Source: Pseudomonadota bacterium (lineage in GTDB: Bacteria; Myxococcota_A; UBA796; GCA-2862545). From it: a DNA stretch of 53,508 nucleotides. The stretch lies in assembly GCA_002862545.1 (NCBI GenBank), contig PKDJ01000295.1, positions 1 through 53,508 of the forward strand, given 5' to 3'. Shown piece by piece: positions 45,311-51,662 of this stretch. A program made the translations under genes and the position numbers. Numbering within the stretch: position 1 is the first letter of the stretch; each line of letters begins with the position of its first letter. The notes under the pieces are model-generated. The model was given only the letters and a program-made list of their open reading frames with translations. It ran no database searches and was not told the origin of the DNA.

Positions 45311-45724
45311 CTACCAGCGATCGCCGCCGCCGCCGCCGCCGCCGCCGTAGCCGCCGCCGCCGCGTCCACCGCCGCCGCCGCCGTAGCCACCACGGCCACC
45401 GCCGCCGCCGCCGTAGCCGCCGCGACCGCCGCCACCGAAGCCGCCGCGACCGCCGCCGCCACGACCACCGCCACCGCGACGGTCCTGGGCCTCATTCACC
45501 CGGATGGTGCGACCGTGCAGGTCGGCTCCAGCCATCTCCTGCATGGCGCGATCGGCGTCTTCGTCGTTCTCGAAGGTCACGAACCCGAACCCGCGGGACC
45601 GACCGGTCTCACGATCCGTGATCACCTTGGCCTCAAGCACCTCGCCGAACTCGGCGAAGGCCTCGTGGAGACCAGCATCATCCGTGGCCCATGCAAGGCC
45701 GCCCACAAACAGCTTCTTCGACAT
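45311..45724 (-). CDS. RRM RNA-binding protein with Gly/Arg/Tyr-rich tail
   Basis: 137 residues from ATG 45724. One RNA-recognition motif with intact RNP2 (LFVGGL, 5-10) and RNP1 (RGFGFVTF, 44-51), followed by a tail of GGGGRGG and GGYGGGG repeats ending DRW. This is the layout of cyanobacterial and myxobacterial Rbp proteins, which resemble eukaryotic glycine-rich cold-induced RNA-binding proteins. The tail is RGG-like and could drive phase separation or RNA contacts. Its DNA is a run of GCC/CCG triplets prone to slippage. A UUCG-capped hairpin sits just before its ribosome binding site. Confidence 0.93.
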   Translation of the reverse strand: MSKKLFVGGLAWATDDAGLHEAFAEFGEVLEAKVITDRETGRSRGFGFVTFENDEDADRAMQEMAGADLHGRTIRVNEAQDRRGGGGRGGGGRGGFGGGGRGGYGGGGGGRGGYGGGGGGRGGGGYGGGGGGGGDRW

Positions 45725-45738
45725 TCTCGATTCCTTCT

Positions 45739-45763
45739 GGATGTCCACCCGAAGGTGGCATCC
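45739..45763 (-). promoter_or_regulatory. UUCG-tetraloop hairpin in the RRM gene leader
   Basis: On the minus strand the leader reads GGATG-CCACC-UUCG-GGUGG-A-CAUCC: a 10-bp stem with one bulged A, capped by a C(UUCG)G tetraloop, the most stable RNA tetraloop class. It ends about 14 nt before the ATG, right beside the AAGGA ribosome binding site. It may bind the RRM protein itself or adjust translation with temperature. Confidence 0.5.
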
Positions 45764-45949: not shown

Positions 45950-48900
45950 TCAGTCGATCTCGCGTGAGCGACCCCTGAGCTTGACTCCGACCATCACCCG
46001 AAGTGGCGCCGTCGGTCGAGCCCCGAGGGGACGCCAAGATACGACCGCTGCCGTGTTCAGCACGTTGCTCGCGGTGGTGTACAGCTCGACGCGCTCGCCG
46101 GGACGGATCGCTGCGGATGCATCGAGCAGGACGAGGGCCGGCACATCCTCCGTCGTGAGCGGCCCCTGGCTCGCCGAGTCGCGCATTCCCGAGCGGGCTG
46201 TCGCTGCGAGCGCTGCACTCCACCTCCGATGCTCCGCAGCCAGCTGCGCCGCACCCTGGTGAACCGGAACATAGGGGAGCCAGTCCCCCTTCTCCACATC
46301 ACCGAACTGGTCGAAGTTGGACGAGAACGAGCTCTGGAAGGCCGAGACCGTCAGCGTGTGTGTCGCGGAGACATCCAGGGCGACGCCCGCTGGCAAGAGG
46401 AACGACTTCCCGAGGAGGCTCTCAGTGCCCACCATCTCGACCTCGCCGCCATCGTACTGGGTGTCGATGGCCTCATCGAGGCAGCCACTGGCGAACGTGC
46501 AGGCACTGGTCAGGTTCGCATAGGCATTCGAGAACCCGACCAACTCCGCCCGAAAATCGATCGTCGACGCGCGAAGTCCGACCTCGGTGTTCCAGCTCTG
46601 CTCTGGCAAGACACCGGGATCGGAGCCCGGCGCGACCGGGCTGAAGCCCCGATGGATGCCCGTGAAGGCATCGAGCCATGGCGTGAGCGACACAAGGGCC
46701 CCCACTCCGGGAAGCAGTGCGGTAGTGGTCTGCCAGTCTTCGGGGCGCTCGTCGGCACCCTCGAAGCGTGTCCGGACATGCTCTACGCGGGCGCCCCCCT
46801 GGAGCGAGAGCGGACCCACATCGAAGGTCTCGTGGAGGTGCCCGGCGAGCGCACGCGCCCGGGTGAGGGCATCGAGGTTGACGACCCGCCCTCCGGCGCG
46901 CCGGAGCACACCACTCCGCATGTGATGCGGAACCTCGTACTGCAGACGCAGCACGTCGTCAGCATGGACGCGAAGGCCTCCCTCGAGCCGGCTGGAGATC
47001 ACGTCTCCTCGAGCACTCCAGCGGGCACGGCTCTGCACACCATAGGCATGAAATCGGCGATCGTTGGTCCCAATGAGCAGCCGCTCCGCCTCGGTCGAGT
47101 CCTCCTCTCCCCTCAGCACGGCGAGCAGGACCCCTGCCCGCCCTTCACCTGTGCCCTGCATCAGCGCGTGCATGTCGACGGAGGGGTCTTCGAAGCGGTT
47201 GAACTTCGTCCAGCTTCGATCGAGGAAGTGGTGGTAGGCGACGGTGCGGGCATCGAACACCTCACCGATGCGCACGGGCCACGAAGCCTCGACCTGCGTG
47301 CGGTGCCACTCCATCAGTCCGAGCTGGGTCGCGGCGTAGCGACGCCACGGCTGGGCCTCGAAGTCGTCAGGCGTCAGCCCCAAGTAGGTCTCGTGCGAGC
47401 GCTCGCGGCTGTAGCCGAGCTTGAGCTCCAGCGCGTGCACACTCTCGGCGTCCGGGTCCGAGCCGAGCCGCCCCTTGAACATCACCTCTGTGCGGTCGAA
47501 TCCGGTAGGACCACCGCCATCGAGTGTCTTGAACCCCGTCGAGCCCACCTCCACGGCCTCGAGGAGGACACCCGAGCGGCCATCTCCGGTGCCGGTCCAC
47601 GCATGAACCTTGCCGGTAGGCCAGTAGCCAGCGGCTACATCGATGGCTCCGTCTGGCGCATCCGGCACCCCACGCGTCACCAGGTTGACGGTGCCACCCA
47701 CGGTGTTCGGCCCATACTGAACCGCCGAGGCTCCCTTGAAGACCTCGACCGACGTCATCCGGGTGGTCATCGGGAAGTAGTACGCCGCAGGAGCGGCATA
47801 CGGCGCGGGCGCGAGGAGGACCCCGTCCTCCATGAGCGTGATCTTGGCGCTGCGGTTGGAGTTGGCGCCCCGGATGCCGATGTTCGGCCGAAGTCCGAAG
47901 CCATCCTCCTCACGCACGGTCACGCCTGGAACCGTCGCCAAGACCTTGTGGATGTCGTCGTGCTCGAAGCGCTCCAGCTGCTCTTCGGTCACCTCATGGG
48001 CCGAGCCCGCGACCTCTGGCAGTCCCTCGTCGCCGACGACGAGGATCTCGTAGTCGAGATCGTCACTGGGCACCTCGTCGTCCGCCTGCGCCAGTGCCGA
48101 GAGGAAGGCAGCCCCCAGCGGCGCGAGCGGTGCCCAGGAGCGTCCGATCTCGACGAGAGGCCCCAGCCACGCAGAGGCGAGGTCATCCCCATGGTTTCGC
48201 GAAGCGACTCCAAACCTCTCGGGAGGCCGCTCGGCGAGCAGGAGGGTCCCACCGAGACGGTCCCAGATGGCGAGCCAGGTGCCGAAGTTGGTGCGCTCGG
48301 TCTCGGGTGCGTGGTGCAGCTGATGCTGGGCTGGGCTGATCAGCCACGCCTCGAGACGTCCCCAGGACCACCACACGTGGCTGTGACGAAGGTTCCCGCT
48401 GATCAGATTCAAGGTCCAGCCGATCCCGTGCACGCCGAGGACCGTCCAGCCCAGGCTCCCCCCTCGAAAGAGCCAGTAGAAGCCGCCGGCAACCAGGCCT
48501 GTGACGACGACACCGCGCAGCTCGTACAGGAACGACTCGAGCGGGTGGATGCGGTGGAAGGTGAGCGGAGTGAGGGTCTCCGCACTGTGATGAACCTGGT
48601 GCAGCGACCACAGCGCAGGCACTGCGTGCATCAGGCGGTGCAGGACATACCGACTCGCATCCCACGCGACGAACAGCGTGACCGCATAGAGCGCCGGCAG
48701 GGCCCACTCGGGCACCCCGTCGAGCTCCGGTCGACCCACGTAGCGGTCGAGCCGCCGAACCAGGTGCGTCGCGAGCCACCAGGCTGTGAACAGAGCGGGC
48801 CAAGCCCCCAGTGCTCGCAAGGCCTGACGACCGAGCAAGAGCTGCATGTCCAGCGCACTGGACCGAGACAGCCACGCGGACCGCTCCGAGCGGCCGGTCC

Positions 48901-49000
48901 ACACCTGCACCAGCCAGCCGATTGCCGCTGCCGCTAGGAGTGCAACCCACCATGTCCGCGAGGCGGGGTCGAGGAATGGTGCGAGGAGGTCACTCATCAC
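45950..49000 (-). CDS. Fusion of fatty-acid hydroxylase/sterol desaturase and TonB-dependent receptor
   Basis: 1016 residues in one uninterrupted frame. Residues 1-270 are an integral-membrane fatty-acid hydroxylase with about four membrane spans and di-iron histidine boxes HRLMH (121-125), HQVHH (134-138) and HQLHH (226-230). Residues 287-306 (GRSWAPLAPLGAAFLSALAQ) look like a signal peptide with a cleavage site near AQA-DDE. A TonB-box-like YEILVVG (318-323) follows, then a plug domain (IHKVLATVPGV, IGIRGANSNRSAKITLMEDG, VQYGPNTVGGTVNLVTR, through 443) of the FecA-like kind and a full-length barrel. There is no in-frame start at the junction. The parts belong in different membranes, so I infer cleavage after export. 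Last gene of an operon, 3 bp after the imelysin gene. Confidence 0.85.
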   Translation of the reverse strand: MMSDLLAPFLDPASRTWWVALLAAAAIGWLVQVWTGRSERSAWLSRSSALDMQLLLGRQALRALGAWPALFTAWWLATHLVRRLDRYVGRPELDGVPEWALPALYAVTLFVAWDASRYVLHRLMHAVPALWSLHQVHHSAETLTPLTFHRIHPLESFLYELRGVVVTGLVAGGFYWLFRGGSLGWTVLGVHGIGWTLNLISGNLRHSHVWWSWGRLEAWLISPAQHQLHHAPETERTNFGTWLAIWDRLGGTLLLAERPPERFGVASRNHGDDLASAWLGPLVEIGRSWAPLAPLGAAFLSALAQADDEVPSDDLDYEILVVGDEGLPEVAGSAHEVTEEQLERFEHDDIHKVLATVPGVTVREEDGFGLRPNIGIRGANSNRSAKITLMEDGVLLAPAPYAAPAAYYFPMTTRMTSVEVFKGASAVQYGPNTVGGTVNLVTRGVPDAPDGAIDVAAGYWPTGKVHAWTGTGDGRSGVLLEAVEVGSTGFKTLDGGGPTGFDRTEVMFKGRLGSDPDAESVHALELKLGYSRERSHETYLGLTPDDFEAQPWRRYAATQLGLMEWHRTQVEASWPVRIGEVFDARTVAYHHFLDRSWTKFNRFEDPSVDMHALMQGTGEGRAGVLLAVLRGEEDSTEAERLLIGTNDRRFHAYGVQSRARWSARGDVISSRLEGGLRVHADDVLRLQYEVPHHMRSGVLRRAGGRVVNLDALTRARALAGHLHETFDVGPLSLQGGARVEHVRTRFEGADERPEDWQTTTALLPGVGALVSLTPWLDAFTGIHRGFSPVAPGSDPGVLPEQSWNTEVGLRASTIDFRAELVGFSNAYANLTSACTFASGCLDEAIDTQYDGGEVEMVGTESLLGKSFLLPAGVALDVSATHTLTVSAFQSSFSSNFDQFGDVEKGDWLPYVPVHQGAAQLAAEHRRWSAALAATARSGMRDSASQGPLTTEDVPALVLLDASAAIRPGERVELYTTASNVLNTAAVVSWRPLGARPTAPLRVMVGVKLRGRSREID

Positions 49001-49003
49001 GAT

Positions 49004-50158
49004 TCAGTCGTTGTCTCCTGCAGCCTCGGCAGGAATCTCGAGTGACAGCACCGTGGTGAGGTCATTCTTGAGCAGGTCTGTCACGCCACCGACCGCGGAG
49101 TGCAGCGCCTCCAAGTCGTCGAGGTCAGAAGACAGGGCCTCGTCGATGGGCAAGTCGACAGCCGGCAGAGCGGCTTCGACTCCGTCCGTTGCCTGCAGGA
49201 TGGCCTCGGTGAGATCGCCATGACCCAGCTCGATCAGCAGATCGTCCATGCCAGCCCCCTCGCCACCCGTGAACAGGCTTCGGAAGCCCACCATGTTCGC
49301 CTCCAGCGCTCGGATAGACAGGCCGGAAGGCAGGTGCTCGACGCTCTCCGGACACTGCTCCTGACCGCAGTCTCGCAGCCCGAGTGGAGCGGCGAGCTTG
49401 CGATCCTTCACGCCCGTCTCGACGTAGAACAGACCGTGGAAAATGGCCGTCAGCGCCTCGTCCGACGTGGCGTATGGCGACGATGCGGTGCCAGGGCCCG
49501 CCAGGGCATCACCAAATCCAGCCCACTCTTGCTGGAGAGACGCGCTCGTCGACAACAGATCATCGGCGAGAGCCCGCGCATGGTTCGCACGTGCCGAGCG
49601 GACACCTGAGTCCCCAAGCGCGCTCCACGTCCCGTCGCTGTTGATGGAGACCTGGCTCGGACACCCATTTCCCGTGCCTTCGACGAAGAGCAGGTGCTCC
49701 AGAGCATCTAGGCCCCGGACGTTGACCAGCGCCGTGTCGAAGTAGGCCCCCACCCAGTCACCCGCCACCGTCTCCTGGTCGACACGGCAGGGGTTCACGG
49801 TGGGCCAGGAGTAGACCGTGTCGCGAAGGTCCTTGCCGCCTGGCGCCACCAGCGCCGATGCGGTCGGACCGATCTGGTGCACCTCACACTCCTGCCAGGC
49901 TAGCATCGCTACCTGCCAAGCTTCCTGGACGGACGCGCGGTCTTCGCCGCCATCCCAATCCTCGACCGCATCGCGAAGCTGAATGACAGCCTCGGCAAAC
50001 CGGTCGATCGCAGGGATGACCACCTGCGGCGCTGCCGCCGAGAGCACATCTGCGACCTCGGTCGGCACCTGCTCCTCGCCTGCGCCGCCCCGTTCGAACG
50101 AGCCACCGCAAGCGCCCAGGAGTGCAACAAGCCAGAACTTACCAGCCGTTCTCACCAT
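49004..50158 (-). CDS. Imelysin-family periplasmic lipoprotein
   Basis: 384 residues from ATG 50158 (ATG codons at 50161 and 50164 are equivalent alternatives). TAGKFWLVALLGAC is a lipoprotein signal. The mature protein is the helical imelysin fold: AWQVAMLAWQECEVHQIGP, SWPTVNPCRVDQETV, VNVRGLDALEHLLFVEG, TAIFHGLFYVETGVKDRKLAAPLG. The metal motif G-x-H-x-x-E of classic imelysins reads GLDALE, as in the COG3489 subgroup where the His is replaced. Imelysins are iron-regulated and linked to iron uptake. It overlaps the DUF4856 gene by 20 bp and lies 3 bp before the receptor fusion gene, so all three are co-translated. Confidence 0.88.
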   Translation of the reverse strand: MVRTAGKFWLVALLGACGGSFERGGAGEEQVPTEVADVLSAAAPQVVIPAIDRFAEAVIQLRDAVEDWDGGEDRASVQEAWQVAMLAWQECEVHQIGPTASALVAPGGKDLRDTVYSWPTVNPCRVDQETVAGDWVGAYFDTALVNVRGLDALEHLLFVEGTGNGCPSQVSINSDGTWSALGDSGVRSARANHARALADDLLSTSASLQQEWAGFGDALAGPGTASSPYATSDEALTAIFHGLFYVETGVKDRKLAAPLGLRDCGQEQCPESVEHLPSGLSIRALEANMVGFRSLFTGGEGAGMDDLLIELGHGDLTEAILQATDGVEAALPAVDLPIDEALSSDLDDLEALHSAVGGVTDLLKNDLTTVLSLEIPAEAAGDND

Positions 50159-51662
50159 CATCATCACCCAGGTTGGCCTCATCGAAGCCATAGGCTGTGC
50201 CGAGCAGCGCACGCGCCGTGCGCAGATCGTCGGCGTAGTCGTCGTCGAGTCCGGCCACGACCGGAGCAGTCCCCACGAGGCCATGGAAGACCTCGAAGTC
50301 GCCGTCGGACATCGGCGAGCGCGGGTTGAACTGCATCACGAGAGCGAAGCCCTTCAGCTCGCCCCAGTGCTTGGCGTGGTCGTTGAAGCTGTAGTCCGGC
50401 GTGCCGTAGTCACCCATGTCCTGCAGGGTGTCATTGATGTAGTGCACGACGGTGGATGCAATCGCGTTCTCCCAGGCAGCGACCGCCTGGTCGCGGTGCC
50501 CCTGAAGCTCGGCGAACTGATCGTCGGAGAGACCACCGTAGTTCTCGGCGATGAGCATGCGGCCCTGCGCGAAGGCCTCCCAGGCCTGCTTCGTGAAGTC
50601 CGTTCCCACGACCGCGCCCCGGTCGCGCTTCGCGGCGTTGACAGAGTGCCCCCAGCAGACCTCGTACTTGAGATCGATGAGGCCATCGCCGTCGTAGTCG
50701 CTCGTACCGATGTCCGCGATCTGGTCGTCGGAGAGGTCGTAGTAGTCACGCGTCGCGCCGAAGTAGCCGAAGCCCTCGTCCCACTGGTGCTCGAGCGGCG
50801 TGTAGTTCTTGCCGTCGTCGTTGGCCGTGTGGTCGGAGAGCAGACCCTTACCCGGCTCGTCGTCGTCCAAGTAGTCATCGGTGCCCTGGCTGAAGGCGAC
50901 CGCTCCACGGGTGAACTTCTCGAGGAGCTGCTTGAGGTCGTGTCCCTCGGCCGTCACGTAGACCGCACCGACCGGCTCGCCGTCCGGGCCGGTGGGAATG
51001 TCACCGTTGGACCAGTTCACAGCGGCGTCGTCGAGCATGGCAACCCAGGCTCGCACCAGGCTCTCTGGCGTCGTCACACCCGGCGCCGGCCAGCCGACGA
51101 AGTCGACGGACCAGTCCTTGTGCTGACCGACCTCGTCGTTGCCCGCCATCTTGCCGAACAGATCCTTGTCGGAGGACACATCGTCGTAGGTGGTCTGCAG
51201 GATGGGCAGGTCAGCCGTGAAGCTGTGGTCGATGGAGCCGCCTACGGTGCTGTCGAACTCCAGGTAGAACATCATGTCCTCAGTCACCTCACCGGGGACC
51301 GGGAACCATCCTGCGTTGAGGCGATCCGTCATGCCGCTGACGTACGCCGTCATGTCTTCGATGAGCAGCTGGCGGAAGGTCTGGCCGCTGTAGGAGACCG
51401 AGCTCGCTCCGGACTCACCGCTGGCAAACTCGTAGTAGGTGGGAACCCCTGCGCCGTCCGTTGGCGTCGTCACAGTGTCGCCGGTGCCGCCCGTGGCCGT
51501 GCCGCCCGTGGCCGTGCCGCCCGTGGCCGTGCCGCCCGTGGCCGTGCCGCCCGTGGCCGTGCCGCCCGTGGCCGTGCCGCCCGTGTCTCCAGAGTCACCC
51601 TTGTCACCACCGCAGGCAGTCAGGACGCAGGCGAGAAGAACAGAAGCGCATCGTGTGCCCAT
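50139..51662 (-). CDS. DUF4856 lipoprotein
   Basis: 507 residues. CASVLLACVLTAC is a lipoprotein signal, followed by GGDKGDSGDTGG and a GGTAT repeat linker of about 35 residues. The rest matches DUF4856: YYEFASGESGASSVSYSGQ, GWPAPGVTTPESLVRAW, LEHQWDEGFGYFGATRDY, GRMLIAENYGG, LKGFALVMQFNP. DUF4856 proteins occur beside imelysins and TonB receptors, mainly in Bacteroidota, and probably bind iron or an iron complex outside the cell. First gene of the operon; a Fur-box-like site lies 22 bp upstream of the start. Confidence 0.88.
   Translation of the reverse strand: MGTRCASVLLACVLTACGGDKGDSGDTGGTATGGTATGGTATGGTATGGTATGGTATGGTGDTVTTPTDGAGVPTYYEFASGESGASSVSYSGQTFRQLLIEDMTAYVSGMTDRLNAGWFPVPGEVTEDMMFYLEFDSTVGGSIDHSFTADLPILQTTYDDVSSDKDLFGKMAGNDEVGQHKDWSVDFVGWPAPGVTTPESLVRAWVAMLDDAAVNWSNGDIPTGPDGEPVGAVYVTAEGHDLKQLLEKFTRGAVAFSQGTDDYLDDDEPGKGLLSDHTANDDGKNYTPLEHQWDEGFGYFGATRDYYDLSDDQIADIGTSDYDGDGLIDLKYEVCWGHSVNAAKRDRGAVVGTDFTKQAWEAFAQGRMLIAENYGGLSDDQFAELQGHRDQAVAAWENAIASTVVHYINDTLQDMGDYGTPDYSFNDHAKHWGELKGFALVMQFNPRSPMSDGDFEVFHGLVGTAPVVAGLDDDYADDLRTARALLGTAYGFDEANLGDDDGENGW
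51481..51585 (-). repeat. 15-bp tandem repeat, seven copies, in the DUF4856 gene
   Basis: Seven back-to-back copies of GCCGTGCCGCCCGTG (the first a variant) encode Gly-Gly-Thr-Ala-Thr linker units between the lipid anchor and the folded domain. The near-perfect identity at DNA level indicates recent slippage expansion. Frame is preserved because the unit is 15 bp. Confidence 0.92.

What the first reader, a model, noticed from the sequence alone, without database searches (positions are those of the whole stretch)
45950..49000. One ORF joins an inner-membrane fatty-acid hydroxylase to an outer-membrane TonB receptor
Residues 1-270 hold three di-iron histidine boxes (HRLMH, HQVHH, HQLHH) and membrane spans; residues 340-1016 are a complete plug-and-barrel receptor. 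Between them lies a signal-peptide-like segment ending AQA-DDE, with no in-frame start and no stop. The two domains normally reside in different membranes, so one chain must be cut after export, or the receptor must remain tethered. I know of no described protein with this architecture. A lipid or sterol-modifying step coupled to iron-complex uptake is an attractive inference.
Basis: partly seen in the sequence, partly recalled or inferred. Interest (0 to 1): 0.85.

Follow-up and report, generated by a model that had tools for sequence, protein, structure and literature searches.

The report
Membrane hydroxylase fused to iron-uptake proteins
One bacterial reading frame encodes a predicted inner-membrane fatty-acid-hydroxylase-like domain and then a TonB-type outer-membrane receptor, joined by what is likely an internal signal peptide that would be cut, and in other bacteria the same enzyme domain is joined to two further kinds of exported protein linked to iron, so the fusion likely ties a membrane enzyme to iron uptake.

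Summary
ORF 45950-49000 (-) encodes an FA_hydroxylase (FAH) domain and a complete plug-and-barrel receptor in one frame. It is not an artefact: all 120 listed hits (of 328; one is the window) pair FAH with a plug domain. The junction looks like a signal peptide: positive n-region, hydrophobic core, AxA, then Q/E/D. Where the genes are separate, the receptor has its own signal peptide and FAH ends before that segment. The same FAH family is fused to imelysin (56 listed; lipobox Cys at the junction) and to Fe3+-type solute-binding proteins (34 listed; mostly AxA). The junction thus keeps the cargo's own export signal, which favours a polyprotein cut after export over a tether. The operon is DUF4856-imelysin-[FAH:receptor], mostly preceded by a Fur-like box (33 of 38 loci); elsewhere a vitamin-K-carboxylase-like HTTM protein replaces FAH, never with it (0 of 54 loci). 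An operon of that HTTM kind is iron-responsive and listed as putatively Fur-regulated in Riemerella. Cleavage and the FAH substrate are untested. I found no description of the fusion in my paper searches.

The parts
45953..48997 (-). FAH::TBDT fusion gene, 1015 aa from ATG (1016 from GTG at 49000)
   Evidence: same pairing in all 120 listed hits (one is the window itself)
48143..48997 (-). FAH domain, residues 1-285; His boxes at 48626-48640, 48587-48601, 48311-48325
   Evidence: PF04116 80.4 bits; 11 His invariant in 65 of 65 aligned fusions; AF2 pLDDT 93.0
48083..48148 (-). Internal signal-peptide-like segment IGRSWAPLAPLGAAFLSALAQA, residues 284-305; likely SPase I cut after A305 (AQA|DDE) or after ALA|Q
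48017..48082 (-). Acidic linker with TonB-box-like EILVV (48035-48049), residues 306-327
   Evidence: pLDDT under 50 at 297-315; sequence
47690..48016 (-). TonB plug domain, residues 328-436
   Evidence: PF07715 57.9 bits; nearest solved plug FecA, E 1.6e-19
45953..47680 (-). Beta-barrel, residues 440-1015
   Evidence: PF00593 64.8 bits; 22 long strands counted in the model
49004..50284 (-). Imelysin (Peptidase_M75) gene; a lipobox LLGAC follows a later ATG near 50158, the likelier start; the only M75 match found in this genome (88% complete)
   Evidence: PF09375 97.1 bits; N-terminus printed
50139..51662 (-). DUF4856 protein, N-terminus with lipobox-like LTAC; first gene of the operon
   Evidence: PF16148 50 bits
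51679..51697 (-). Fur-box-like 19-mer GAAAATAGTTATCAATTCC, 16 nt before the DUF4856 ATG
   Evidence: 15 of 19 to the 19-mer of locus L055, 12 of 19 to the canonical box (25 of 500 resamples as good); set-level test

Best explanation
A single reading frame encodes an FAH-family domain, predicted to sit in the inner membrane, followed without a stop codon or an internal start by a TonB-dependent receptor, and the segment between them likely works as an internal Sec signal peptide that signal peptidase I would cut, releasing the receptor to the outer membrane and leaving the enzyme behind in equal number. Shown by sequence: the one frame, its wide conservation, the signal-peptide character of the junction, its match to the cargo's own export class in three kinds of fusion, and the operon with imelysin and DUF4856. 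Inferred: membrane topology (FAH carboxyl end in the cytoplasm), cleavage, one-to-one supply, and iron-responsive control. Inferred more weakly: the FAH module is an oxygen- and iron-dependent hydroxylase serving iron acquisition, acting on a membrane lipid, quinone or incoming chelate not yet known; a vitamin-K-carboxylase-like HTTM protein takes its place in other operons.
For: FAH with plug in 120 of 120 listed hits. Junction: of 118 fusions scored (120 given) AxA in 108, net positive n-region in 111, Q/E/D after the cut in 89; signal peptides of 27 unfused orthologous receptors (30 given) scored alike (p 0.09), other FAH hydrophobic stretches did not (p 2e-29). Cargo-matched class: small residue + Cys after the core in 54 of 56 FAH::imelysin (the other two, P0242 and P0267, read CGSC and CGGC and were missed by the pattern), 3 of 140 receptor and 1 of 34 solute-binding (SBP) fusions. 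Natural fission: in L067 FAH stops in a GTGA overlap and the receptor frame goes on with a signal peptide; in G019 FAH ends without the segment and the receptor elsewhere has one; 117 of 118 fusions but 10 of 38 unfused FAHs have a hydrophobic 11-mer there, two of the ten convincing by eye. FAH fused also to imelysin (56) and SBP (34) in the 120 listed of 181 hits; the SBP half of P0333 is FutA/FbpA-type and 32 others are 67-78% identical to it. HTTM, whose lumenal domain is C-terminal, shares no frame with the receptor in 16 loci, as the topology predicts. Fur-like boxes in 33 of 38 loci at p<=0.05 and 27 at p<=0.01, scrambled control 5 and 3; an operon with the same genes but HTTM is iron-responsive in Riemerella (PMC5609570, section read).
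Against: No cleavage, expression or enzyme data. AxA is common by chance in these Ala-rich chains (74 of 118 control stretches; also 37 of 56 imelysin junctions), and my junction score was set after I had seen junctions. Internal starts are possible elsewhere: 17 of 24 fused loci have some ATG/GTG/TTG within 25 codons before the core, 4 with an SD-like 4-mer; an in-frame Met in the stretch examined before the core was counted in 17 of 120 and 11 of 21 receptor, 25 of 56 imelysin and 32 of 34 SBP fusions (a longer stretch gave 40 of 118 receptor fusions). One relative (P0342) joins FAH to a luciferase-like protein with no evident signal peptide, and L011/L012 join it to a creatininase-type domain (Pfam run on L011). 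The window's own Fur-like site is weak against the canonical box and gamma loci show little (1 of 6). In Riemerella the iron response persists without fur (2.7-3.1 fold).
Confidence: 0.75

Rival explanations
1. The chain is not cut: the internal segment stays as a transmembrane anchor and the receptor spans the periplasm tethered to the inner-membrane FAH.
For: The AF2 model shows one long helix 273-298 continuing from the FAH domain, and the acidic linker varies in length among relatives.
Against: The window linker between AQA and the plug is about 22 residues, in my judgement too short to cross the periplasm (inference). Imelysin fusions keep a lipobox Cys, the mark of cutting by LspA. Unfused orthologues carry the same kind of segment as an ordinary N-terminal signal peptide.
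Confidence: 0.08
2. Two proteins are made: translation restarts at an internal codon before the signal peptide, so the open frame is only a run-on of two coupled genes.
For: 32 of 34 SBP fusions carry an in-frame Met before the core; 4 of 24 receptor loci have a start with an SD-like 4-mer; the unfused pair in L067 overlaps by GTGA.
Against: The window and 6 more of the 24 loci have no ATG/GTG/TTG in the 25 codons before the core; 17 of 24 have no ATG.
Confidence: 0.09
3. The fusion is real and cut, but has no meaning for iron: FAH is a general lipid hydroxylase that happens to sit upstream of exported genes.
For: FAH is also fused to a creatininase-type domain (L011, L012) and a luciferase-like protein (P0342); fused and unfused states alternate on the tree (at least 13 changes for receptor fusion, 5 forced by starred branches).
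Against: Of the 112 listed hits that carry a second domain, 111 join FAH to imelysin, an SBP (33 of 34 of the FutA/FbpA-like kind by similarity to P0333) or a receptor; of 54 receptor+imelysin loci 36 have FAH and 15 HTTM; Fur-like boxes precede the operon.
Confidence: 0.2
4. Assembly or sequencing error merged two genes.
For: Two fetched loci (L068, L074) do show frame breaks, so errors may occur in such assemblies.
Against: The same in-frame junction in other assemblies at 48-78% identity over residues 1-310 and in 22 other loci.
Confidence: 0.01

Closest known systems
Riemerella anatipestifer cluster RAYM_09779-09794 (PMC5609570, passages and section 17 read)
   Same: Consecutively numbered receptor, membrane enzyme, imelysin lipoprotein and a hypothetical protein, 2.1-3.1 fold up without iron in wild type; listed there as putatively Fur-regulated (Table 4)
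   Different: The membrane enzyme is a vitamin-K-dependent gamma-carboxylase homologue, listed as a separate gene; no FAH, no fusion; I did not check whether the hypothetical protein is DUF4856
FecA, ferric dicitrate receptor (1kmo, 1pnz)
   Same: Nearest solved plug; several source names say Fe(3+) dicitrate transport protein
   Different: 74.8 bits against a 1100-bit cut-off; no N-terminal signalling domain reported by Pfam; fused behind FAH
Scs7p fatty-acid 2-hydroxylase (4zr0, 4zr1) and OlsE ornithine-lipid hydroxylase
   Different: No PDB sequence match at E<=1, no Foldseek match at E<=0.001, far below the OlsE cut-off
Bradyrhizobium FbcH, cytochrome b/c1 precursor (recalled; searches did not find a paper)
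   Same: Works like it: a membrane protein run into the signal peptide of an exported protein and cut there
   Different: Different proteins, no outer-membrane cargo, no iron uptake
Imelysin / EfeO-type systems (PMC3143127, passages read)
   Same: Imelysin-like protein in an operon linked to iron
   Different: Those are said to go almost always with an EfeB-like peroxidase in the genome; here the operon partner is FAH or HTTM

Membership tests
FA_hydroxylase superfamily (PF04116) | Profile match above the curated cut-off | tested here: met
   80.4 bits, cut-off 31
FA_hydroxylase superfamily (PF04116) | Conserved histidine boxes of a di-metal site | tested here: met
   11 His invariant in 65 of 65 fusions
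FA_hydroxylase superfamily (PF04116) | Fold of a solved member (Scs7p) | tested here: inconclusive
FA_hydroxylase superfamily (PF04116) | Hydroxylase activity | not testable with these tools
   needs an assay
OlsE ornithine-lipid hydroxylase (NF052566) | Equivalog cut-off 475 bits | tested here: not met
   29.2 bits whole chain, 32.8 FAH part
TonB-dependent receptors | Plug and barrel above cut-offs | tested here: met
   57.9 and 64.8 bits
TonB-dependent receptors | 22-stranded barrel | tested here: met
   22 strands of 8 or more residues counted in the AF2 model; prediction only
FecA (NF041676) | Equivalog cut-off 1100 bits | tested here: not met
   74.8 bits
Signal-peptidase-processed bacterial polyprotein | Internal Sec signal peptide of the cargo's class | tested here: met
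   sequence features only
Signal-peptidase-processed bacterial polyprotein | No separate start for the cargo | tested here: met
   met in the window and 6 other loci of 24; the other 17 have a possible start codon
Signal-peptidase-processed bacterial polyprotein | Cleavage observed | not testable with these tools
   needs protein work
Fur-regulated DUF4856-imelysin-X-receptor operon | Gene content and order | tested here: met
   window; relatives
Fur-regulated DUF4856-imelysin-X-receptor operon | Fur box upstream | tested here: inconclusive
   set-level 33 of 38; window site alone weak

The most novel reading that the evidence does not exclude
A roaming inner-membrane di-iron oxygenase is the hidden arm of bacterial iron capture: bacteria repeatedly weld it, through the cargo's own signal peptide, in front of whichever iron protein they use - outer-membrane receptor, imelysin lipoprotein or periplasmic Fe3+-binding protein - making self-splitting polyproteins whose halves end in different compartments, and exchange it for a vitamin-K-carboxylase-like enzyme with the same job.
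Probability: 0.5. Interest if true: 0.88.

Novelty: new variant of a known kind. Interest (0 to 1): 0.78.

Why it matters
It would be a conserved class of bacterial polyproteins whose two halves are delivered to different compartments, with three cargoes and two signal-peptidase classes as natural replicates. It would also move a set of proteins now named 'sterol desaturase' or 'fatty acid hydroxylase' to iron acquisition, and make a question testable: why does iron uptake go with an oxygen-using membrane enzyme (FAH, or the gamma-carboxylase homologue in its slot)?

Tried and rejected
Rejected: HTTM::receptor fusions. Several receptor frames in HTTM loci were over 1200 codons long, but the HTTM protein lies in another frame, and most receptors read there show their own Met and signal peptide (L083 shows no Met). 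Rejected: reading the window junction as two genes (no in-frame start). Frame breaks in L068 (junction) and L074 (plug) were not counted as split genes.

Led nowhere: Foldseek against the PDB for FAH; PDB sequence search for FAH; tblastn of a FAH::SBP protein against plasmids, whose listed rows matched only the SBP half, and one plasmid neighbourhood without an annotated FAH; Fur-box search in gamma loci; a paper for the FbcH precedent. Papers seen only as listings or abstract starts: those, apart from five whose passages I read: PMC3143127, PMC7567364, PMC5609570 (and its section 17), PMC5561996, PMC9478572. Searches listed no paper.

Limits of counts: admits only proteins of fusion-like length and lists 120 of 328, one search lists 120 of 181, so neither gives the fraction fused. 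One search scored two candidates per genome and did not list all matches. One search examined 24 of 27 fused loci given (3 lacked the anchor), and in at least one (L059) the window chosen as core looks misplaced. One search dropped 3 of 30 unfused receptors (no Met found) and 2 of 120 fusions. The tree is a quick one on 110 chosen rows. The Fur p-values are per locus, from 200 first-order resamples.
Full report
What is there. The minus-strand ORF 45950-49000 encodes 1015 residues from ATG 48997. Pfam gives FA_hydroxylase 106-251, Plug 328-436 and TonB barrel 582-979, all above cut-off. Upstream on the same strand lie an imelysin gene and a DUF4856 gene, both with lipobox-like N-terminal segments. 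Downstream is an RRM protein that I take to be unrelated. In the genome (88% complete) this is the only imelysin match; there are seven FA_hydroxylase matches.

The fusion is a family. A search with residues 1-310 that admits only proteins of 0.55-1.75 times the whole length found 328 proteins at E<=1e-3. All 120 listed (one is the window) carry FA_hydroxylase and Plug, 115 also the barrel; the others are 48-78% identical over that region. Among loci fetched, 22 besides the window hold both halves complete in one frame, 4 more (L045, L047, L052, L098) hold both in a frame cut by a contig end, and 2 (L068, L074) have a broken frame. A survey of 377 genomes of the phylum found a match at E<=1e-40 in 135; many of the listed matches cover the receptor half only.

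The junction passes the signal-peptide tests I made. After the last histidine box comes a conserved RNHGDD-like stretch, then Arg/Lys, a hydrophobic core, AxA, and an acidic linker leading to a TonB-box-like IIV. Scored on one scale, 118 fused junctions (AxA 108, net positive n-region 111) match 27 N-terminal signal peptides of unfused orthologous receptors (AxA 21, positive 26; p 0.09) and differ from the other hydrophobic stretches of the same FAH domains (AxA 74 of 118, positive 48; p 2e-29). The scale includes features I had already seen, so the p-values are descriptive.

Unfused relatives show whose segment it is. In L067 the FAH frame ends in a GTGA overlap and the receptor frame goes on with a signal peptide; in G019 FAH stops without the segment and the receptor, beside imelysin on another contig, has its own. 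Of 38 unfused FAHs on contigs over 10 kb, 28 have no hydrophobic 11-mer in the tail, and of the other 10 I find only P0226 and P0238 convincing; 117 of 118 fusions have one. In six gammaproteobacterial loci the order is DUF4856-imelysin-receptor-FAH with separate genes.

The same enzyme is welded to other iron-linked proteins. FAH::imelysin was seen in L096 and L097. A search from it found 181 proteins and listed 120: 56 FAH::imelysin, 34 FAH::solute-binding protein, 21 FAH::receptor, 1 FAH::luciferase-like and 8 FAH alone. The solute-binding half of P0333 matches FutA/FbpA-type Fe3+-binding proteins (2pt1 E 8e-87, 1q35 E 3e-83); 32 of the other 33 are 67-78% identical to it (P0344 over a short stretch), P0316 is 33%. 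Junction class follows the cargo: small residue + Cys after a hydrophobic core in 54 of 56 imelysin fusions, 1 of 120 and 2 of 20 receptor fusions, 1 of 34 solute-binding fusions. Strict AxA is found in 110 of 120, 14 of 21 and 29 of 34 of the last three sets, but also in 37 of 56 imelysin junctions, so the Cys, not AxA, is the telling mark. This is what internal, cleavable signals predict and a bare tether does not. On a 110-row FAH tree the receptor-fused state needs at least 13 changes (5 forced by starred branches), imelysin and solute-binding fusion 3 each (2 forced), so fusion and fission recur.

Starts. In the window no ATG/GTG/TTG lies within 25 codons before the hydrophobic core; that holds for 7 of 24 loci, and 17 of 24 lack ATG. 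By protein, a Met in the stretch before the core was counted in 17 of 120 and 11 of 21 receptor, 25 of 56 imelysin and 32 of 34 solute-binding fusions; with a longer stretch 40 of 118 receptor fusions have one. Separate translation therefore stays open above all for the solute-binding branch.

The slot and the operon. Between imelysin and receptor, other members of the phylum carry an HTTM protein with a vitamin-K-carboxylase lumenal domain (289.9 and 131.3 bits for L083). Of 54 loci with receptor and imelysin, 36 have FAH, 15 HTTM, none both, 3 neither (the choice of loci was not random, two are duplicates). HTTM and receptor never share a frame in 16 loci; its lumenal domain is C-terminal, so its end would lie on the wrong side to run into a signal peptide, whereas FAH's is expected in the cytoplasm (inference from the family). 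Upstream of DUF4856 the canonical Fur box is matched better than in resamples at p<=0.05 in 33 of 38 loci and at 0.01 in 27 (scrambled control 5 and 3); gamma loci 1 of 6. In Riemerella anatipestifer the consecutively numbered genes for receptor, gamma-carboxylase homologue, imelysin lipoprotein and a hypothetical protein rise 2.1-3.1 fold without iron and are tabled as putatively Fur-regulated, though the iron response persists in the fur mutant (PMC5609570, section 17).

Mechanism. I commit to a polyprotein: FAH is inserted in the inner membrane, the next hydrophobic segment starts export, signal peptidase I cuts near A305, and the receptor goes to the outer membrane. What FAH oxidises is unknown. 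Its recurrent association with iron-linked proteins, its exchange with another putative oxygen-using membrane enzyme (recalled chemistry of vitamin K carboxylase) and the Fur-like boxes suggest a step of iron acquisition rather than general lipid metabolism.

Novelty. Searches of the open-access library for imelysin + TonB-dependent receptor + sterol desaturase, for DUF4856, for TonB-dependent receptor + fatty acid hydroxylase + fusion, and for a wider mix gave no title or abstract start that describes it; most subscription papers are not covered. The parts are known kinds; the architecture and its three cargoes are, as far as I could see, undescribed.

Noticed in passing
L096:4914-7166 (-), L097:5895-8117 (+): FAH fused to imelysin in one frame with a lipobox at the junction; 56 such proteins listed.
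   Followed up: yes
P0333 and 33 other proteins: FAH fused to a solute-binding protein, 33 of 34 of the FutA/FbpA-like kind; the few source names are alphaproteobacterial (Rhodospirillales, Terasakiella); genomic neighbours unseen.
   Followed up: partly
L011:5974-7770, L012:5064-6869: FAH-family domain, one more hydrophobic segment and a creatininase-type domain in one frame in Methylococcaceae (Pfam run on L011 only), another FAH::X architecture.
   Followed up: partly
P0342: FAH joined to a luciferase-like monooxygenase with no evident signal peptide, nested in the solute-binding clade of the tree.
   Followed up: partly
P0261: FAH::receptor with a TonB C-terminal domain (PF03544) between the junction and the plug.
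   Followed up: no
L083:4572-5900 and 15 other loci: HTTM/vitamin-K-carboxylase-like gene occupies the FAH slot of the same operon; not seen together with FAH in one locus.
   Followed up: yes
51500-51660 (-): DUF4856 protein begins with a short Gly/Thr-rich repeat right after its lipobox.
   Followed up: no
45311-45748 (-): Glycine-rich RRM RNA-binding protein downstream of the fusion.
   Followed up: no
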